A stretch of 64,000 nt of DNA, from positions 310,001 to 374,000 of the forward strand of contig NC_015557.1 in assembly GCF_000213785.1 (NCBI RefSeq), in the 5' to 3' direction. The stretch comes from Hydrogenobaculum sp. 3684 (lineage in GTDB: Bacteria; Aquificota; Aquificia; Aquificales; Aquificaceae). The notes under the pieces were generated by a model, which was not told the origin of the DNA, did no database searches, and saw only the letters and a list, made by a program, of their open reading frames with translations. Within the stretch, counting starts at the first letter, position 1; every line of letters starts with the position of its first letter. This document shows, one piece after another, positions 24,986 through 37,135 of the stretch. The translations under genes were made by a program, and so were the position numbers.

Positions 24986-25057
24986 GGAATCCACTTGTCT
25001 TACAGCCAAGTTGCATATATATTATTTTTTGTAGTAAAGAGATTGGAGGTTTTAGCT

Positions 25058-25726
25058 ATGCTAATACACATATATGGTCCAGGGGGACCATATCCAGCAA
25101 TGAATTATGTAGCCAAAAAGTTTAACAAATATCAAAATAAGTGCAGGGCCGTAGTAAAAGCTGGACCTTTGCCAGTTTGGAAAAAAGAGGCTTTGAAAAA
25201 TGGAGATATTATTTACAGTGGTTCAGAAGATATGATGGAAGATTTTCTAAGAAAATTACCCAATATAGATAAATCTAGTATAAAACCAGTTTACTATAGG
25301 CCTTCTGCTATCATATATAGAGATATAACGATAAAAAGCTTTAAAGATTTGGCTAAACCTGGTGTAAAAATACTTGTGGTAAATGGTGCTGGTCAAGTGG
25401 GGCTTTGGCAGGATATGGCGATGAAGTATGGAAATTTTGAGCTTTTAAAAGCTATAGAAAAAAATATATCTCACATATCTTATAACTCCAAAGATGCGTT
25501 GGAATATTGGAATACCCATAAAAATGTAAACGCTTTTATCATATACAACATATGGGCTATAGCCCATCACATAAAAGATTACTATATACCAAAGCGCCAT
25601 GTGATATATAGAGATATGGATATATCCCTTACCTACAAAGGCGATAAAAACCCTTGTGCTAAAGAATTTTACAACTATGTAATCGAGGCAAAGCAAGCTT
25701 TTAAATATTTTGGATGGAGTTATTAG
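25058..25726 (+). CDS. AcfC-like periplasmic-binding-fold protein without signal peptide
   Basis: A 222-residue protein of the AcfC family (ABC-type substrate-binding fold related to ModA/sulfate-binding proteins). Recognisable blocks are IHIYGPGGPYPAMN, VKAGPLPVWKKEAL, IIYSGSEDMMEDF, KILVVNGAGQVGLWQDMA, and FGWSY at the end. I chose ATG 25058 because GGAGG lies 9-13 bases before it. From this start there is no signal peptide, unlike usual AcfC proteins; an upstream TTG (24995) gives a hydrophobic stretch but has no ribosome site. The ligand is unknown, perhaps an oxyanion. Confidence 0.72.
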   Translation: MLIHIYGPGGPYPAMNYVAKKFNKYQNKCRAVVKAGPLPVWKKEALKNGDIIYSGSEDMMEDFLRKLPNIDKSSIKPVYYRPSAIIYRDITIKSFKDLAKPGVKILVVNGAGQVGLWQDMAMKYGNFELLKAIEKNISHISYNSKDALEYWNTHKNVNAFIIYNIWAIAHHIKDYYIPKRHVIYRDMDISLTYKGDKNPCAKEFYNYVIEAKQAFKYFGWSY

Positions 25727-25888
25727 AGGAAAAGTTAACTAAATTTTAGCAAGTGTAAACATAGGAATTTTATTATACAAAAATCTTAAACAGACAAAAG
25801 TTTTAACAAATATTGCCTTTTGCTATTCATTTGGATAAATGCGGTATTTTTATGCTTTTGAGCTAACAACTATTAGGTTTGCTGCAAT

Positions 25889-26578
25889 TCAACATGTTCT
25901 AAATTGCCTTTTTGACACTTCTTTAATTAGCGATGGGTCTTTAAGTAAATCTATAACCACCTGTAGCTCTTTTATGTTTAGATATTCTTCGTCTGTATGC
26001 GGGTTGCGGTATCCACAAGCAAGGTTTACACTAGCTATAGAAAGCTCAGAGCTCAAATCAGTTATATCACTATATGAGCCACGCTCTTTATCAAGTCCTC
26101 TTTTGTTGAATATATCTAAAAACTCATCCTCTGCACCAACATAATCCACATAGTGCCCAGTTTCTTTTCTATCTATTTCTATAAAACAGGTGTTAGCTGA
26201 TAGAAGCTCTGGCAAGTCATGTATTGCTTTCTTTACACCTATGCAGCCGGTTTCTTCATAGTTTGTAAACAATAAATTGTAAGGCAGATCTTTCAGTGTA
26301 AGCAGTGCATAAACACCAGCTCTATCATCAGCACCAAGACCATAGCAACCACGGTTAAATAAAATATCATTTTCTAAAACGATATCATCTAATTTTGGTT
26401 TTTGTTTGTGAACCGTGTCTATATGAGCCACCAAGCAGGGTAAATTATCATCTTTGTGCAGGTATAAATACATATCATTCAAGTAAAAATTTGGTTTTAT
26501 CTCTTGAAAAATATGATTGTAAAGTTCACTTTCATTAAGAGATAACAAATGTGATAAATAGTCTAAATTTAAATCCAT
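25889..26578 (-). CDS. M20/M28-type zinc metallopeptidase-like protein
   Basis: About 229 residues with the metal-binding pattern of co-catalytic zinc peptidases: LVAHIDTVH (His and Asp ligands), GLGADDRAGVYALL (bridging Asp), NYEETGCIG (catalytic Glu pair) and a C-terminal NPHTDEEYL (His ligand). It is shorter than peptidase T or M20 carboxypeptidases and lacks the dimerisation insert. I chose ATG 26578, which follows GGGAGGTT, over an in-frame start 15 codons upstream. It is a single gene in repeat-rich surroundings. Confidence 0.72.
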   Translation of the reverse strand: MDLNLDYLSHLLSLNESELYNHIFQEIKPNFYLNDMYLYLHKDDNLPCLVAHIDTVHKQKPKLDDIVLENDILFNRGCYGLGADDRAGVYALLTLKDLPYNLLFTNYEETGCIGVKKAIHDLPELLSANTCFIEIDRKETGHYVDYVGAEDEFLDIFNKRGLDKERGSYSDITDLSSELSIASVNLACGYRNPHTDEEYLNIKELQVVIDLLKDPSLIKEVSKRQFRTC

Positions 26579-26689
26579 AAAACCTCCCAAGCTTGCATTT
26601 ATATTTAAAATACTACAACACAATTAACTTGTCAATGCTTTTTATAAGTTCACTATATCTCTAATATATAAAAACTGTGTTAAACTTAT

Positions 26690-26800
26690 GGTCTTAAAAA
26701 GTTATTTTTCTATATGCTTTTCAAAAGGCTAGCATGCTTAGCATTTATTACTATTGCTTGGCATACTCGTCGTTAGATTAGTGTCTTGACATTGGAACCT
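26690..26800. repeat. Degenerate copy of a dispersed intergenic repeat (copy C)
   Basis: The gap between the peptidase and the AAA gene holds AAAGTTATTTTTCTATATGC, CATTTATTACTATTGC and TTGGCATACTCGTCG. These match, in the same order, parts of the repeat at 56340-56450 (AAAGTTGTATTTTTCTATG, CATTTCTTACTATTGC, GTGGCATACTTGTCG). No coding frame is evident. It is one of at least four related copies in the window. Confidence 0.55.
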
Positions 26801-26818
26801 AAACTATTCTGATGAATA

Positions 26819-28354
26819 CTATACTTTTTCCCACTCAAAACTTACAATGTTCTTATCTTTCTTGCTAAACTCTATCCCTATTAGATAGACCTCTTGGTAC
26901 TTACCAATATACTTCTCATAATACCTTTTATCTTTTATCTGTTTTAAAGCAACGCCCTCTTCTTTATCTTCTACTACCTTAAACTCTATTATATAAACGC
27001 TGTCTTGGTTAAAGATGCTAAGATCTATTTGGCCTTTGTTGGTGTTGTCTTCTGATATCACATTTAACCCTGCTCCGTTAAAAAGAGCATATACAATAGA
27101 TGCATAAAAGCCTTCGTATGATGCTATATCGTTGTTTCTATACCAATCATGGGGGATACTTGCTAAGAACATGTATATAGCATCTTTTATTTTGTCTATA
27201 TTCTTTTCTTGAATGGCTGTTATTAAATTTATCTCAGCCTTATCTTTTAAAGGTGGGTTTCTTACTATGTAAGTTAAGAAAGCATCGTTAAAACTCATCC
27301 TCACTTCAAAGTTTGGATAAGATAATTTAAATACGTTTTTACTACCTAAAACCTTGTAGTCTTTTATGGTAAGATAACCTGCTTGAAATAATAGATTTTC
27401 TGGAAATATATTATCCACATCAAGATTAGATAAAATCTCTTCTCCTACTTCCAAGTTCTCAAGCTCTGGGATATAGTATCTGTTTTTCATAAACATCTTA
27501 ATAAGGAATGTAGGTGTTCCTGTCTCAAACCAAAAGGCTCTAAACCTTTTTTCTGAAAAAAGAAGAAGTATATCAAAAGGATTGTAAACACTCTCTCCAA
27601 GCCAACTATAGCCGTTGTACCAGACTTTTATCTTCTCTTTATCAAAATCCTTTAGTCTGTCTTCAAACACACTTTCAAGCTCAGATTGGGTATATCCGCA
27701 AACAGTGGCAAAGCTTGGGTCTATGGTTATATCGTTTAACTGGTTTAAACCGCTAAAGATTGATACTTTTGAGAATCTTGAAACCCCTGTAAGAAAGACG
27801 AGCTTTAGATAAGGGTCAGAGGGCTTTAGTATCTCAAAAAACTTTTTTAGTATATCTCTATTTCTTTTGGCTTTTTCTATATCCTCTATCACATCAAGAA
27901 TAGGCTTATCGTATTCATCTATAAGCACTACCACTTTTTGATTGTATTTTTCATATAGTTTTTGGATGAGTTCTTGGAATTTTAAGGGTATAAGCCTTTT
28001 GGTTAGTTTTATATGGTGTAATGTTGCTATATCATCCAAAAATGATTTTAAAGATTCTATGAGATTTTCCTCTGTATCTGGGTAAGCCTGGCTTAAATCA
28101 AACTTTATCACCGGATATTTCTTCTCCCAATCCCAATTATCGTATAGATATAACCCTTTAAATAATTCTTTGTTGCCAGAAAAGGCTTCTTTTAATGTGT
28201 CAAGAAAAAGAGATTTACCAAACCTTCTGGGGCGGGATAAAAAATAATATCCGCCTTCTTCTAATTTTTTAACAAACATCGTCTTGTCTACATAATAATA
28301 GTTGCTATTTCTTATTTTCTCAAAGGTTTGTATACCTATTGGTAAAAGCTTCAT
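26819..28354 (-). CDS. AAA-ATPase-like protein with PD-(D/E)XK nuclease domain (DUF1703)
   Basis: A 511-residue protein of the mobile AAA-ATPase/DUF1703 family. The N terminus LPIGIQTFEKIR leads to a Walker A-like RRFGKS, followed by Walker B VVVLIDEYDKPI. The C-terminal nuclease-like domain (about 385-505) contains GQIDLSIF and YIIEFKVVE, the D...E-x-K pattern. Such genes often occur in many copies and are suspected to be mobile or defence-related; function unproven. A TATAAT box (28361-28366) is six bases before the ATG, so it is probably leaderless. It is divergent from cas6. Confidence 0.78.
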   Translation of the reverse strand: MKLLPIGIQTFEKIRNSNYYYVDKTMFVKKLEEGGYYFLSRPRRFGKSLFLDTLKEAFSGNKELFKGLYLYDNWDWEKKYPVIKFDLSQAYPDTEENLIESLKSFLDDIATLHHIKLTKRLIPLKFQELIQKLYEKYNQKVVVLIDEYDKPILDVIEDIEKAKRNRDILKKFFEILKPSDPYLKLVFLTGVSRFSKVSIFSGLNQLNDITIDPSFATVCGYTQSELESVFEDRLKDFDKEKIKVWYNGYSWLGESVYNPFDILLLFSEKRFRAFWFETGTPTFLIKMFMKNRYYIPELENLEVGEEILSNLDVDNIFPENLLFQAGYLTIKDYKVLGSKNVFKLSYPNFEVRMSFNDAFLTYIVRNPPLKDKAEINLITAIQEKNIDKIKDAIYMFLASIPHDWYRNNDIASYEGFYASIVYALFNGAGLNVISEDNTNKGQIDLSIFNQDSVYIIEFKVVEDKEEGVALKQIKDKRYYEKYIGKYQEVYLIGIEFSKKDKNIVSFEWEKV

Positions 28355-28427
28355 AATGTGATTATACCACAGATCATTGTGAGCTAATTACTATCTAAAT
28401 GTTATAATTGATAAAGGGTAAAAAATT

Positions 28428-29164
28428 ATGAAAGTGGCGTATAAGCTTAAGCTTGGATTTTCTTTTGAAAAAGAGCTTGTGTTGCCAAAGCATTACAATC
28501 ATACACTTCAGGGGTTTTTCTATGAAAATATGGATAGGATGCTCTCAAGGTTTTTCCACGATATTGGGTTTCCTTACAACAATAGAACCTTTAAACTGTT
28601 TACATTTTCAAATATCATAGGCAATCTAAAAGCCGAATACCAAAATCAAATCGTATACGAACCTCCAAATATGTACATATACTTTTCAACACCTGTTATA
28701 GGGGCTATGAAATCCATTGTAAACCGGGTTATAAGAAACGATAGGCTTAGACTAAGCAAAAACATCATAAACCTTTCTGAGATAGAGATAACAGAAGAAC
28801 CGATAGATCAAGATGAGATAAAGATAGAGTGCCTATCTCCTATAGTAGTTTATAGAACACCCATTGGTAGCAAAAGACATATTTATTTTAGCCCTTTTGA
28901 AAACGAGTTTTATGAGCTTTTAAGAATAAACATACTAAAAAATACCGGATAATATACGGAAGAGATTACGATGGGGATTTTGAGATAACCCCTGCCAAGG
29001 TAAAAAAAGAATATATGAGAAAGGTGTTTTTTGATAAAACCTTCATAATAGGCTACGATGGACAGTTTTATATAAGAGCGGATAAAGATATGCTAAAAGT
29101 AGCCCTCGAGTGTGGGCTTGGCGTCAAAAACAGCGCCGGGCTTGGATGTATAATGAAGGTATAG
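28428..29164 (+). pseudogene. cas6: cas6 CRISPR endoribonuclease gene with a -1 frameshift
   Basis: Cas6 cuts CRISPR transcripts within the repeat. The first frame (28428-28952) gives a RAMP-type N-terminal half ending after YELLRINIL. The second frame supplies the rest, through ITPAKVKKEYMRKVFF to the Gly-rich C-terminal motif GLGVKNSAGLGCIM. The switch lies at an A6 run (28937-28942) within A-AAA-AAT (28937-28943), a plausible -1 slippery heptamer. Read through, the protein is about 245 residues, normal for Cas6. It could be a decayed gene, transcriptional slippage, programmed frameshifting or a sequencing error. A TATAAT lies 19 bases before the ATG. Confidence 0.82.
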
Positions 29165-29168
29165 TTTT

Positions 29169-29666
29169 ATGGATTTTGATAGGATAAATGGAACCCTTAT
29201 GTGGTATAGTTACATATGCGATAGACAAGTGTGGTTTATAGGGCACTCTATAGAGCCACCTCAAGAAAATGAATATCTTGGTAAAGGGAGAGCCATTCAT
29301 GAGATATTTTATCAAAACAGCGCCAAAGAACTTTTTGTGGATAATACTATTATGATAGATGTTGTAAGAGGAAAAGAGCTTATAGCGGAGTTAAAATCTA
29401 GCTCAAAACATCTTCGCAGTGCTATGATGCAAATGGCTTTTTATCTTTATTATCTAAAGAAAGAAAAGGGTAAAATGTTTTCTGGGAAGGTCCTTGTCCC
29501 CACAGAGAAAAAATCTTACGATGTGAAGCTTACCGATGATATAGAAAAGGAGATTGAGGATAAGATAAGACATATAAATGAGATTTTGGCACTTGATAAA
29601 CCGCCAGCGTTTGTTAAAATACCCTTTTGTAAAAATTGTGCTTATAAAGAACTGTGCTTTGCTTAG
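29169..29666 (+). CDS. cas4: Cas4 nuclease
   Basis: A 165-residue RecB-like exonuclease that trims pre-spacers for Cas1-Cas2. It has the Fe-S ligands C17 at the N terminus and C154, C157 and C163 at the C terminus (CKNCAYKELC). Nuclease motifs are GRAIHE, the Asp in MIDVVRG and the E-x-K in AELKSS. Length matches the short Cas4 proteins of type I systems. It lies four bases after cas6 and four before cas1. Confidence 0.88.
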   Translation: MDFDRINGTLMWYSYICDRQVWFIGHSIEPPQENEYLGKGRAIHEIFYQNSAKELFVDNTIMIDVVRGKELIAELKSSSKHLRSAMMQMAFYLYYLKKEKGKMFSGKVLVPTEKKSYDVKLTDDIEKEIEDKIRHINEILALDKPPAFVKIPFCKNCAYKELCFA

Positions 29667-29669
29667 GCT

Positions 29670-30572
29670 ATGGCAAAAACTCTTTATCTTTTTAGCAGCG
29701 GAAGATTGGAAAGAAAAGACAATACCCTTCATTGGGAATCGGAAAAAGGGAGTAAGACTATACCTGTAGCGGTAATAAGCGATATAAAAGTATTTGGTGA
29801 AATAGACCTAAACAAAAGACTTTTGGAGTTTCTTGATAAGAACGATATTCCTATACACTTTTTCAATTATTATGGATATTATGTAGGTTCTTTTTACCCA
29901 AGAAATGCTTATAACTGTGGTATCATAATCCTAAAACAAGCAGAGCATTACATGGATAAAGACAAAAGGTTTTACATAGCAAAGAATTTTCTTGTGGGTG
30001 CTATATCAAATATGCTTAAAAACCTAAAATACTACGAAAATCGTGGCAACGAAGAGCTTAAAAGTATCTCTTCTTATATAACAGAAAAGTTAAAGGCTTT
30101 GGATTTGAAAGAAGATATACAAACGCTTATGCAGACCGAAGGCGATGTAAGGAAAACCTATTATCAGGCTTTTAACAGTATACTAAAAGATATGGAATTT
30201 GAAAAAAGAACCAAAAGACCACCGGAAGACCCTTTAAACGCCATGATATCTTTTGGCAATTCACTACTTTATACTACAGTGCTTAGTGAGATATATAAAA
30301 CGCATTTGGACCCGCGCATAGGATACCTTCACGAAACAAACCAAAGAAGCTTCACTTTAAACCTTGATATTGCAGAAGTTTTTAAGCCGGTGATTGTGGA
30401 CAGAGTAATTTTTCAGCTTTTAAATAAAAATCAAATAACTGAAAAGCATTTTGACAAAGATATAAGTTTTGCTTACCTAAACGAATCAGGGCGAGAGATA
30501 TTTGTAAGAAGTTTTGAAGAAAAGCTAAATACAACAATAAAATACAAAAATATGTTTTGTTTGTGCCTATAG
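29670..30572 (+). CDS. cas1: Cas1 integrase, C-terminus truncated by the CRISPR array
   Basis: Cas1 inserts new spacers at the leader end of an array. The 300 residues show the catalytic E157 (TEGDVRKTYY), H221 (YLHETNQRSF) and D233/E236 (DIAEVFKP) of type I-B-like Cas1. The conserved sequence stops at LNTTIKYK; the last residues NMFCLCL are read from repeat DNA, and the stop codon lies inside the first CRISPR repeat. Family members usually continue about 30-35 residues (YLIRLE and similar) and are followed by cas2 and a leader; all three are missing. Activity is doubtful. Confidence 0.85.
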   Translation: MAKTLYLFSSGRLERKDNTLHWESEKGSKTIPVAVISDIKVFGEIDLNKRLLEFLDKNDIPIHFFNYYGYYVGSFYPRNAYNCGIIILKQAEHYMDKDKRFYIAKNFLVGAISNMLKNLKYYENRGNEELKSISSYITEKLKALDLKEDIQTLMQTEGDVRKTYYQAFNSILKDMEFEKRTKRPPEDPLNAMISFGNSLLYTTVLSEIYKTHLDPRIGYLHETNQRSFTLNLDIAEVFKPVIVDRVIFQLLNKNQITEKHFDKDISFAYLNESGREIFVRSFEEKLNTTIKYKNMFCLCL

Positions 30573-30850
30573 GGGATTGAAACAAGATTCTAACCCTGGG
30601 AACATCTCACTAAGTTTTAGGTTTTGTTTGTGCCTATAGGGGATTGAAACCGCTAGTGACAACAAACTGTAGTGCATGACCAATAAGTTTTTTGTGTACC
30701 TATAGGGGATTGAAACGCACGCACAAAAACTGCACAAAAACTGCTAAAAAATGGTTTTTTGTGTACCTATAGGGGATTGAAACTATAGTGAATAACATCA
30801 TTTTTACATTTTGCAATGAGGTTTTTTGTGTACCTATAGGGGATTGAAAA
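30554..30850 (+). CRISPR. Five-repeat CRISPR array fused to the end of cas1
   Basis: Thirty-base repeats lie at 30554-30583, 30621-30650, 30687-30716, 30754-30783 and 30821-30850, with four spacers of 37, 36, 37 and 37 bases. All repeats share CCTATAGGGGATTGAAAC at the 3' end, except that the last ends in A instead of C, a typical trailer-end decay. Repeats 1-2 differ from 3-5 at three positions (6, 8 and 12). Spacer 3 is internally repetitive (GCACAAAAACT twice). Repeat orientation puts the leader on the cas1 side, where no leader remains. Confidence 0.92.
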
Positions 30851-30939
30851 GAGTTTTTGTTAGGTTATAGAATAATTGCTGAGATATATAAGAATGTCAT
30901 GGTTTATGCGTTCACAATGTAGTGAATTTGTAAAATACA

Positions 30940-30968
30940 TTGACAAAATGCATAAGTTGTCATATAAT
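30940..30968 (+). promoter_or_regulatory. Consensus sigma-70 promoter pointing into the IS256-type element
   Basis: TTGACA (30940-30945), an exact 17-base spacer and TATAAT (30963-30968). A second TATAAT follows within ten bases, and AAGGAG at about 31003-31008 could be a ribosome site. The gene it once served has been replaced by the insertion element; the truncated RAMP gene on the other side of the element is the obvious candidate. Confidence 0.65.
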
Positions 30969-31006
30969 ATACTATAATATGAAAATATAAATTAAGATAT
31001 TTAAGG

Positions 31007-33594
<2,588 letters not shown>

Positions 33595-33761
33595 CAAATA
33601 TACTACATAATACCAATGACATTGTTTATCAACTATTAAGTTATTACTTTATTAAAGGAAGCATTAGGATGTTAAAAAGTTAGTTCTAATTTTGACTCTT
33701 CCAGTTTGGCTTTTGGCGCAGGTGTATCACAGCGCAACGTTTTGTGTTTTGATCTGTATAA

Positions 33762-33791
33762 GTTTTACTTGTACCTATAGAGGATTGAAAC
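33762..33791 (+). repeat. Solitary CRISPR repeat of the array-1 family
   Basis: A 30-base sequence ending GTACCTATAGAGGATTGAAAC-like, matching the array at 30554-30850 with about four differences from repeats 3-5 (one is A in TATAGAGG). It lies 2.9 kb beyond the array, past the insertion element and the RAMP fragment. No second copy at the expected spacing was seen. The rest of the 33595-34045 gap contains no gene I can support. Confidence 0.75.
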
Positions 33792-34045
33792 CTTCATATT
33801 TAACCTATAACCTTGGGGGCGTGGTTATCTCAATTATGTTTTTTTCCAGAGTAGCTCTACTTCCAAATATTTATACCTGATTCCTTAATAGCTTTTATCT
33901 TCAGTTAGTCTTATTTTTACCTTGATGCTTTTATCATATAAGTGTTGAAGTGTATAAATTGTCACCACTTTTTTATTTCAAAATAATTTTTCTCATATTT
34001 ATGTTAATATAATTACCATTATGTTAACAAATGAAAGCTTTTATA

Positions 34046-34059
34046 TCTTGATATCAAGA
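34046..34059. promoter_or_regulatory. Perfect 14-bp palindrome TCTTGATATCAAGA (probable operator)
   Basis: It lies four bases upstream of the -35 box of the HTH/coiled-coil gene. Further TGATAT half-sites occur inside the promoter (34074-34079 and 34084-34089) and GATATC recurs just after the start codon. The arrangement suggests binding by the adjacent HTH protein. Confidence 0.55.
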
Positions 34060-34063
34060 AAAT

Positions 34064-34092
34064 TTGACATCAATGATATAAAATGATATATT
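34064..34092 (+). promoter_or_regulatory. Promoter of the HTH/coiled-coil gene (TTGACA-N17-TATATT)
   Basis: TTGACA (34064-34069), 17 bases, TATATT (34087-34092) preceded by TGA, giving an extended -10. Transcription would start near 34099, giving a short leader with GGAGGT at 34110-34115 before ATG 34123. The spacer contains two TGATAT half-sites. Confidence 0.6.
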
Positions 34093-34122
34093 AATGTTAT
34101 CAAAATATTGGAGGTAAGTCAA

Positions 34123-34731
34123 ATGGGTGATATCAAAATGAAGGCAAGCGAGTATGCGGCAATGATGTCAGTGTCATTAAATACTGTCAAAAATAGGATA
34201 AAAGCTGGAATACTAAATGGTGCCAAAGAAGAAGATGGTATATGGTATGTGTATTTGACATCAGACGAATATGAAAATCTGCAAAACAGCAAAGAAAAAT
34301 CTCAAGAAAGAGAACAAGCTATTTCAGACTCTATAGAAAAATTGAAAGCTCTTCCAGATGGTGCTCTTATAGCCACATATATCAATATTCAAAGATATGC
34401 CGAGTTTCAAAAGCAAGAGCTTATGCAAGAGCTTTCTAGTCTGTATGCTTTGCTGGCTGTAAAAGAGAAAGAGATAGAGTTTTTGTCAAAGGATTTAGAC
34501 CGTTATAAAAGCAAAATAGAAGAGCTTAAAGAAGAAAACTTATCATTATCTGAAAAGCTAAAAAACCTAAGCAAAGAGTTAGAAGATTGTAAAAAAGAGT
34601 ACAAAGATCTAGACAACAAATATCAAAGAGCAGACATAGATATGAAAAAAATAATCCTTGATAAAGAAAAAGAGATACTTGAGAAAGAGCGGGAGATAGA
34701 AGAGTTAAAGAGGAAACTATCTATGCTATAA
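34123..34731 (+). CDS. Helix-turn-helix protein with long coiled coil
   Basis: About 202 residues. The N terminus (about residues 1-45) has a MerR/excisionase-like pattern: MKASEYAAMMSVSLNTVKNRIKAG, then a short wing-like IWYVYLT. From about residue 95 to the end the protein is a continuous charged coiled coil. This resembles plasmid KfrA-like or partition-accessory proteins in layout, but I see no specific family match. The start is supported by GGAGGT eight bases upstream. A palindrome and half-sites around its promoter suggest self-regulation. It stands alone next to the CRISPR remnants. Confidence 0.65.
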   Translation: MGDIKMKASEYAAMMSVSLNTVKNRIKAGILNGAKEEDGIWYVYLTSDEYENLQNSKEKSQEREQAISDSIEKLKALPDGALIATYINIQRYAEFQKQELMQELSSLYALLAVKEKEIEFLSKDLDRYKSKIEELKEENLSLSEKLKNLSKELEDCKKEYKDLDNKYQRADIDMKKIILDKEKEILEKEREIEELKRKLSML

Positions 34732-34750
34732 GCTTTAAAAATTTTTAACA

Positions 34751-35341
34751 CTATATCCTTGAGTTTATGAGGCTTTTAAGATAAAAATAGCTTAATTCTT
34801 TTTTGTATTGACGCCTTATTATATCCATTAACTTATTGAATATATTGTAAGTTAGAAGAGCATCGTCTTTAGCTCTGTGAAGTCTTTCGTATTTTATGTT
34901 AAAGTAATCTGCTACTGCAGAAAGTTTGTAGGATTTTAGGTTAGGGATGAGTTTTTTGGAAAGTTCAAGGGTGCAGATATTTGGAGATTGTAGTTTTTTA
35001 TGAAGATATATGCTGTAAGCTTTGTTTAAAAACGATAAATCAAATTTTACGTTGTGACCTACTATGATATAGTCTTTTACAAAGTTGTCAAAATCGTATA
35101 TAACCTCTTCAACCTTGGGTTGGCCTACCAGCATAGCGTTTGTTATGCCTGTTATTTCTGTTATCCTTCTTGGAATAAAAAAACCTGGGTTTATGAGTCT
35201 GTGAAATTGTTTTGTGATTCTTTCTTTTTCCACCAAAAAGGCAAAAATCTCTATTATTTCATGCTCATCTGGATTAAGGCCGGTGGTTTCTATGTCTAAA
35301 ACTACGTATGCGTCATTCTCAAAAGATTCGCTAAAATACAT
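34751..35341 (-). CDS. DnaQ-like 3'-5' exonuclease (DNA polymerase III epsilon type)
   Basis: A 196-residue DEDDh exonuclease. Motif I is VLDIETTGLNPDEHEIIE (about residues 14-31), motif II is IVGHNVKFDLSFLN, and motif III is HRAKDDALLTYNIF. It could be the proofreading subunit or a stand-alone repair exonuclease; the lack of a C-terminal alpha-binding region favours a DnaQ-family protein rather than a certain epsilon. Convergent with the HTH gene, 19 bases apart. Confidence 0.83.
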   Translation of the reverse strand: MYFSESFENDAYVVLDIETTGLNPDEHEIIEIFAFLVEKERITKQFHRLINPGFFIPRRITEITGITNAMLVGQPKVEEVIYDFDNFVKDYIIVGHNVKFDLSFLNKAYSIYLHKKLQSPNICTLELSKKLIPNLKSYKLSAVADYFNIKYERLHRAKDDALLTYNIFNKLMDIIRRQYKKELSYFYLKSLINSRI

Positions 35342-35354
35342 AATTTCACACGCA

Positions 35355-36305
35355 TTACTGTAAATATACCTTTATGTAGCTTTCTTTTTTAAGTTTGTGT
35401 AAAATCTCATCGTATTTTTTCTTCATCTTTTCTTCTAAAAGCTTTTTCTTTAGCTTGTCTAGGTCTATGTTTTTATATACAAGTTTTATGTTTTTAACCT
35501 TAGCAATGTATATGTTGTTTTTACCTTCTGCAAAGACTATATCACCTTTTGATGCTTTCCAGACTTGTTCGTCTAAGTTTTTTTTCAAATCTCCTTTTGC
35601 TACTTCTAATTCTTGAGGAGTTAGGTTTAGTTTGCTGGCTATCGTTTTTAAGCTTGTGGTGTTGTTTAAAAGCTTACTTAGTTTATCTTTGTCTTTTTTG
35701 GGCACTATAAGAAGTTCAATATCTCTTTCTATTTTAGGTTTGCCGTATTTTAATTTTAAAAGCTCAATATCAGAAGGTGTAATCTTAACAGCTTTTCTTA
35801 AGTATTCTCCAAAGCCAGCTGTTGCCAAGATCTCTTTTCTTAAAAAGTCTCTAAACTCTTTTGGTGATATACCTTGTTTTTTTAGCTCTTCGTAAAGTTG
35901 TTCAATGGTAAGGTTGTTTTGAGAGGCCAAGTCTTTTATAGTTTGGTCTAAAAAGCTCTCTGGTGTGGCCATATGGTTTTCACTCAAATATTGGTATATG
36001 AGGTATATATCTATAAGCCTTTTTAAAGCTAATTTTGCATCTTTTGTACCAAAATAAACCATTGCTATTTTCAAATCGCTTTCTAAAATTGGTTCACCGT
36101 TTACGGAAGCTACAACTCTATTTACTAAAACTCCAGGTGTGCTATGTAAAAGCTCTTCAAAGCTGTTGTTGGTAGCGCTTTGTTGGTTTATAGTTTTATG
36201 GCTTTTATCAACGTTTTTATCAGTCTTAGCGCCTGCAAATGTAATATTTATTAGGGTTAGTATAGATATAGCGCTTGTTAGTATTTTGCTTTTGTAAAAT
36301 TTCAT
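35355..36305 (-). CDS. SurA-like periplasmic chaperone
   Basis: A 316-residue secreted protein with a signal peptide (about residues 1-24, ending TFAGA). The SurA N-terminal motif VNRVVASVNGEPILESDLKIAM (about 60-81) is present, followed by a helical chaperone region (about 85-170) and a C-terminal part that resembles a degenerate parvulin domain, lacking a clear active-site pattern. It would assist outer-membrane protein folding, which fits LptD in this genome. GGAGGTG precedes the ATG. Confidence 0.75.
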   Translation of the reverse strand: MKFYKSKILTSAISILTLINITFAGAKTDKNVDKSHKTINQQSATNNSFEELLHSTPGVLVNRVVASVNGEPILESDLKIAMVYFGTKDAKLALKRLIDIYLIYQYLSENHMATPESFLDQTIKDLASQNNLTIEQLYEELKKQGISPKEFRDFLRKEILATAGFGEYLRKAVKITPSDIELLKLKYGKPKIERDIELLIVPKKDKDKLSKLLNNTTSLKTIASKLNLTPQELEVAKGDLKKNLDEQVWKASKGDIVFAEGKNNIYIAKVKNIKLVYKNIDLDKLKKKLLEEKMKKKYDEILHKLKKESYIKVYLQ

Positions 36306-36382: not shown

Positions 36383-36490
36383 GTGGTATGCTTGTAAACC
36401 GTGTTATACTTGTGAACCTTGGCATACTTGTGAATCGTGGCATACTTGTAGGGTGTGGCAGACTTGTGAATCGTGGCATACTTGTCTTTA
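36383..36490. repeat. Six tandem 18-bp repeats, consensus GTGGCATACTTGTGAATC
   Basis: Units start at 36383, 36401, 36419, 36437, 36455 and 36473. The core CATACTTGT is nearly invariant; the last five bases vary. The 18-base period makes one frame read as repeated Trp-His-Thr-Cys-Glu-Ser, but there is no ribosome site and the same unit occurs in another intergenic gap, so I read this as DNA repeat, not gene. The following stretch (36491-36721) holds no gene I can support. Confidence 0.8.
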
Positions 36491-36961: not shown

Positions 36962-37121
36962 GTTTCATCTGAACCGTGTGGGTTAAGAAGCACAACACCT
37001 TTGCCGTTTACAAGCACGTTTGAAGAGTTTCATCTGAACCGTGTGGGTTAAGAAGCTGATTTGACAGCATCAAATACAGTTGCAATAATCTGAGTTTCAT
37101 CTGAACCGTGTGGGTTAAGAA
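36962..37121 (+). CRISPR. Second, three-repeat CRISPR-like array with a different repeat
   Basis: Three identical 28-base copies (36962-36989, 37027-37054, 37094-37121) start GTTTCATCTGAACCGTGTGG and end TTAAGAA. They are separated by unrelated 37- and 39-base sequences. The repeat is unrelated to that of the array near cas1. No cas gene adjoins it. A consensus promoter sits directly upstream in the same direction. The repeat identity and spacer-length range fit CRISPR, but three copies is the minimum for the call. Confidence 0.72.
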
Positions 37122-37135
37122 AAAGAAAACGTATT

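What the first reader, a model, noticed from the sequence alone, without database searches (positions are those of the whole stretch)
30540..30590. cas1 runs into the first CRISPR repeat; cas2 and the leader are gone
The cas1 stop codon lies inside repeat 1 (30554-30583) and the last Cas1 residues are read from repeat DNA. Family Cas1 proteins continue about 30-35 residues, and cas2 plus a leader normally follow. A recombination or deletion seems to have joined the middle of the last cas1 segment to an internal repeat, removing the Cas1 tail, cas2, the leader and possibly leader-proximal spacers in one event. The array would be frozen, yet cas4 and most of cas1 remain intact, suggesting the event is recent.
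Basis: partly seen in the sequence, partly recalled or inferred. Interest (0 to 1): 0.75.

Follow-up and report, generated by a model that had tools for sequence, protein, structure and literature searches.

The report
cas1 cut short by CRISPR array
In this Hydrogenobaculum-type hot-spring bacterium a deletion fused a CRISPR memory-writing gene (cas1) directly onto the memory array, removing the gene's end, its partner cas2 and the control region, so this array very probably can no longer record new viruses; it is a clear but ordinary case of CRISPR decay.

Summary
cas1 (29670-30572) matches type I-B-like Cas1 through codon 294 (30551). Two bases later CRISPR repeat 1 begins (30554), and the stop codon (30570-30572) lies inside it. 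In 104 related Cas1 genes the tail after that point is 32-38 residues in all but three: two cut short near contig ends and one extended. cas2 follows cas1 in 93 of 99 relatives. No other array starts closer than 184 bp to a cas1 stop. The two closest relatives (65-66% identity) carry cas1 tail, cas2 and leader in about 530 bp between the same codon and their first repeat. No lost cas2 turns up elsewhere in the closed 1.55-Mb genome; the only credible one belongs to another cas1-cas2 locus with a different repeat. So a deletion of at least about 530 bp is well supported, and the array is very probably frozen.

The locus is decaying more widely: cas6 has a frameshift, a III-D Cas7-like gene lacks its start, and transposase debris splits the region. 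The sister species G003 lacks the whole 8-kb segment and has no Cas1 or Cas6, yet keeps an array of this repeat family. 'Recent' and 'single event' are plausible but untested. Similar truncations are published. It is a new example of a known kind.

The parts
28428..29164 (+). cas6, split by a 1-nt frameshift at the A-run 28937-28942 (first ORF 28428-28952; continuation in another frame to stop 29162-29164)
   Evidence: TIGR01877 in the first part; PF01881 C-terminal domain in the continuation; frame check
29169..29666 (+). cas4, complete
   Evidence: PF01930 positions 1-159/160, TIGR00372 10-178/180
29670..30551 (+). cas1 (type I-B-like), the part homologous to the family: residues 1-294, metal-ligand motif residues E157, H221, E236 intact
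30552..30572 (+). end of the cas1 reading frame: 2 junction bases (AT) plus repeat DNA, encoding MFCLCL and stop
30551..30554 (.). deletion junction: cas1 codon 294 joined to the 5' end of repeat 1 with 0-2 ambiguous bases
   Evidence: comparison with relatives' cas1 DNA
30554..30850 (+). CRISPR array A: five repeats (30554-30583, 30621-30650, 30687-30716, 30754-30783, 30821-30850), four spacers, no leader
31014..32253 (-). Mutator-family transposase in two broken frames, between the array and the RAMP gene
   Evidence: PF00872 in both pieces
32275..33594 (+). type III-D Cas7-like RAMP gene lacking about 180-215 N-terminal residues
   Evidence: TIGR03986 positions 215-568/568; Cas7_IIId; only copy in genome
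33762..33791 (+). isolated sixth repeat of the same family; its 3' end coincides with the right edge of the segment absent from the sister species
25766..33791 (.). about 8-kb segment holding all of the above, present here but replaced by about 86 bp in sister species G003

Best explanation
This is the remnant of a cas6-cas4-cas1-cas2-leader-array CRISPR locus. A deletion joined codon 294 of cas1 to the 5' end of an array repeat, removing about 35 C-terminal residues of Cas1, all of cas2 and the leader: at least about 530 bp, more if leader-proximal repeat-spacer units went too. Without the Cas1 tail, its own Cas2 and the leader, the array cannot take up new spacers. Any crRNA would come from read-through of the cas6-cas4-cas1 transcript, because no leader promoter remains. 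Shown: the junction, the family-wide tail, and the usual gene order. Inferred: that it was a single deletion, the loss of function, and the read-through.
For: Homology ends at residue 294-295 in the profile and pairwise alignments. Tail length is 32-38 in all but three of 104 relatives, and tail columns (S, R, Y, K, K, H at 95% or more) are about as conserved as the rest. cas2 follows in 93/99. In the two closest relatives the same codon lies 530-531 bp from the first repeat, with cas1 tail, cas2 and leader between, and the L020 repeat matches repeat 1 at 25 of 30 bases (my count). No other credible Cas2 or Cas1 tail in the closed genome except those of the distinct I-B locus. Similar truncated cas loci are published: Bacteroides fragilis I-B (PMC5704556), Thermus (PMC7515739), M. 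tuberculosis (PMC5310062).
Against: No close strain with the intact junction was available; the sister species lacks the whole segment. Reads could not be checked, so a local assembly error is not formally excluded. Loss of Cas1 function is inferred, not measured.
Confidence: 0.9

Rival explanations
1. Assembly artefact: short identical repeats led the assembler to drop the cas1 tail, cas2, leader and proximal spacers, and the cell has an intact locus.
For: Arrays are a classic collapse point, and reads are not available here.
Against: Collapse needs identical sequence on both sides; cas1 around codon 294 shares no more than a few bases with the repeat, so a cas1-to-repeat join is not a repeat collapse. 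The genome is one closed contig. The locus shows other decay: cas6 frameshift, truncated RAMP gene, transposase debris.
Confidence: 0.04
2. Cas1 of this branch naturally ends here and the array naturally abuts it.
For: The frame is open and the catalytic residues are intact.
Against: All 104 surveyed relatives continue further, even the contig-end cases by 17 or more residues, and none of the other loci has an array within 184 bp of the cas1 stop. The last residues here are read from repeat DNA.
Confidence: 0.02
3. Self-inflicted deletion by the adaptation machinery: a broken DNA end inside cas1 was joined by Cas1-Cas2 to the leader-side edge of repeat 1, as in half-site spacer integration, and resolution removed the DNA between. 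This is a variant of the best explanation that names the agent.
For: The junction falls 0-2 bp from the repeat's 5' edge, where Cas1-Cas2 normally joins a spacer 3' end (established knowledge of Cas1-Cas2); a random endpoint in a 67-bp unit would do so in about 4-5% of cases. The right edge of the strain-specific segment also falls at a repeat end.
Against: One event, noticed after the fact; ordinary end-joining can give the same join; no known example met in the papers searched.
Confidence: 0.05

Closest known systems
Truncated type I-B loci of Bacteroides fragilis (PMC5704556)
   Same: Truncated cas1, other cas genes missing, short residual array; the authors infer a single deletion after spacer uptake
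   Different: There cas2 is kept and the 5' end of cas1 is lost; here the 3' end of cas1, cas2 and the leader are lost and cas1 joins the repeat itself
Truncated cas1 genes upstream of type III arrays in Thermus thermophilus HB27c (PMC7515739)
   Same: cas1 remnants beside arrays that do not acquire spacers; intact I-B cas1 elsewhere in the genome
   Different: There only C-terminal pieces remain and the leaders are present; here the N-terminal 294 residues remain and the leader is gone
cas1-cas2 deletions in M. tuberculosis (Beijing RD207 and deleted-DR strains; PMC5310062)
   Same: Deletion of cas1-cas2 next to a CRISPR array
   Different: Complete gene loss, type III-A; deleted-DR strains lose all spacers
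Type I-B cas6-cas8b-cas7-cas5-cas3-cas4-cas1-cas2-leader-array loci of G012 and G022 (same family)
   Same: 65-66% identical Cas1, similar cas6 and cas4, repeat of the same family
   Different: They keep the effector cassette, cas1 tail, cas2 and leader

Membership tests
Cas1 (TIGR03641 / type I-B Cas1b) | Sequence match to the family profile above the curated cut-off | tested here: met
   407 bits against a cut-off of 304, profile 1-290 of 324
Cas1 (TIGR03641 / type I-B Cas1b) | Conserved metal-binding residues | tested here: met
   E157, H221 and E236 fall in columns conserved in at least 95% of 103 sequences; their role is taken from knowledge of Cas1
Cas1 (TIGR03641 / type I-B Cas1b) | Conserved C-terminal segment (S..R..YK..KH) | tested here: not met
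   Missing after residue 294
Functional CRISPR adaptation module | Cas2 encoded with Cas1 | tested here: not met
   Only one credible Cas2 in the genome, in the other I-B locus
Functional CRISPR adaptation module | Leader upstream of repeat 1 | tested here: not met
   cas1 codon 294 is 2 bp from repeat 1
CRISPR array | Near-identical repeats with regular unique spacers | tested here: met
   Five 30-bp repeats at 66-67 bp spacing
Complete type I-B system | cas3, cas5, cas7, cas8b at the locus | tested here: not met
   None found in 25001-36000 with the relatives' proteins
Complete type III-D system | Cas10 plus several Cas7-like proteins | tested here: not met
   One N-terminally truncated Cas7_IIId-like gene; no match to the Csm1/Cas10 model TIGR02578 in the genome
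Functional CRISPR array | crRNA production and use | not testable with these tools
   Needs RNA data

The most novel reading that the evidence does not exclude
The Cas1-Cas2 integrase made the deletion itself, by joining a broken chromosomal end in cas1 to the leader-side edge of repeat 1, so that the memory-writing machinery destroyed its own gene, partner and landing site in one reaction.
Probability: 0.05. Interest if true: 0.6.

Novelty: new member of a known kind. Interest (0 to 1): 0.22.

Why it matters
It is a cleanly dissected case of how a CRISPR locus loses the ability to learn while keeping its memory, with a sister species one step further: no Cas1 or Cas6 at all, yet a 29-repeat array of the same family. 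It is useful for studies of CRISPR decay and orphan arrays, but does not change any picture. The only reason for more interest is the coincidence of the breakpoint with the repeat edge, which would matter if many such deletions did the same.

Tried and rejected
The weak Cas2 hit at C1:588775 was rejected: two stops and a score below the cut-off, and the sequence and ORFs there show no Cas2. A second Cas1 ending early (L022) was checked as a possible parallel: its contig ends 75 bp later and no repeat lies there. L102 is cut by its contig end. A first motif test for cas2 missed most genes and was replaced by a profile test. Spacers of array A had no credible match in phage records, and two spacer cores had none in viral contigs. 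Comparing the junction with the sister species failed because the whole segment is absent there. Transposition as the direct cause was considered: no transposase sequence lies at the cas1-repeat joint, so it is not favoured. Microhomology (GTTT in the cas1 Val-Ser codons and at the repeat start) was looked at but does not fit without a further 6-bp loss.

Full report
What was checked. The window is G000:C1:310001-374000 of a closed 1,552,775-bp genome. The genus is inferred to be Hydrogenobaculum: the sister genome G003 has 1,559,514 bp, which I recall as the length of Hydrogenobaculum sp. Y04AAS1; the naming rests on that recollection. The cas1 frame runs 29670-30572. Its last matching residue is N294 (codon 30549-30551), then two bases AT, then repeat 1 from 30554. 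The stop TAG at 30570-30572 is inside the repeat. The finding's coordinates and description are right.

Is the ending abnormal? Yes. The I-B Cas1 profile matches 290 of 324 positions. The two best-matching solved Cas1 proteins continue 31 and 37 residues past the aligned point. In 104 related Cas1 genes the tail is 32-38 residues except for two truncated near contig ends (17 and 20) and one long outlier. Tail columns are about as conserved as the body. cas2 follows in 93 of 99 relatives with enough sequence, and in the 58 other loci with an array within 1.5 kb the first repeat is never nearer than 184 bp to the cas1 stop; in the window it lies within the reading frame.

What was lost. The closest relatives, in genomes G012 and G022 of the same family (65-66% identity), read cas6-cas8b-cas7-cas5-cas3-cas4-cas1-cas2-leader-array. 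From the codon equivalent to N294 to the first repeat is 530-531 bp. The L020 repeat GTTTATTAGGTGCCTATAAGGGATTGAAAC agrees with repeat 1 at 25 of 30 bases by my count. So the loss is at least about 530 bp; whether leader-proximal spacers also went cannot be told. A query of relative Cas1 tail plus Cas2 found in the genome only the cas1-cas2 of the other locus, apart from one weak match with a stop inside.

Wider state of the locus. cas6 is split by a 1-nt shift at an A-run (both halves recognised). cas4 is complete. No I-B effector genes lie here; in the order survey the pattern cas6-cas4-cas1 appears twice (one of the two may be the window itself), so their absence may be original or a further loss. 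After the array come a broken Mutator-family transposase, a III-D Cas7-like gene without its N-terminus, and an isolated repeat at 33762-33791. No match to the Csm1/Cas10 model exists in the genome. Thus an effector dedicated to array A was not found. Two I-B loci elsewhere, at 0.59 Mb (cas6-cas8b-cas7-cas5-cas3, no cas1) and 1.08 Mb (complete), use different repeats. The second has intact Cas1 and Cas2, but that Cas1 is only 43% identical and array A has no leader, so rescue in trans is unlikely (inference).

Related genomes. G003 is 96-97% identical in the flanks. It lacks the 8-kb segment 25766-33791 (about 86 bp there instead) and has no Cas1 or Cas6 anywhere. Yet it carries a 29-repeat array of the same repeat family, orthologous in position and 95% identical in leader to array B of this genome at 1.024 Mb; the two arrays share no spacers. 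So these arrays gained or replaced spacers after the two split, and at least G003 later lost its cas genes. That fits a repeat family that has been losing its machinery in this genus (inference).

Mechanism. A plain deletion is the best account. The breakpoint lies 0-2 bp from the repeat edge, which a random endpoint in a 67-bp unit would reach in about 4-5% of cases. That leaves a small chance that Cas1-Cas2 itself made the join. Nothing here separates this from ordinary end-joining.

Known precedents. Truncated cas1 next to residual arrays is published for Bacteroides fragilis (PMC5704556) and Thermus thermophilus (PMC7515739), and cas1-cas2 deletions for M. tuberculosis (PMC5310062). The finding is a further member of that kind.

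Noticed in passing
G003:C1:1037709-1039600 (L151:9711-11601): The sister species has a 29-repeat array with an intact leader but no Cas1 or Cas6 in its whole closed genome; the first three spacers are identical copies.
   Followed up: partly
G000:C1:1023955-1024400 (L048, minus strand): Second array of the same repeat family, with leader, beside carB and without cas genes; its leader is 95% identical to that of G003 but no spacer is shared.
   Followed up: yes
window 28937-28942: cas6 is split by a single-base shift at a run of six A; could be a real mutation, slippage or a sequencing error.
   Followed up: partly
window 36962-37130: Three-copy mini-array with repeat GTTTCATCTGAACCGTGTGGGTTAAGAAGC, close to the repeat of the I-B locus at 0.59 Mb (L136).
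   Followed up: no
window 36383-36485, L049:1363-1429, L049:5937-6146: An 18-bp tandem unit (GTGGCATACTTGTGAACC and variants) occurs at several sites in the genome, in two cases inside coding frames.
   Followed up: no
window 33791/33792: The right edge of the strain-specific 8-kb segment falls at the 3' end of the isolated repeat, so two rearrangement edges in this locus coincide with repeat ends.
   Followed up: partly
window 26819-28354: AAA-ATPase/PD-(D/E)XK gene next to cas6 belongs to a family with at least seven long copies in G003.
   Followed up: no
window 30940-30968: A perfect sigma-70 promoter consensus (TTGACA, 17, TATAAT) on the + strand between the array and the transposase.
   Followed up: no
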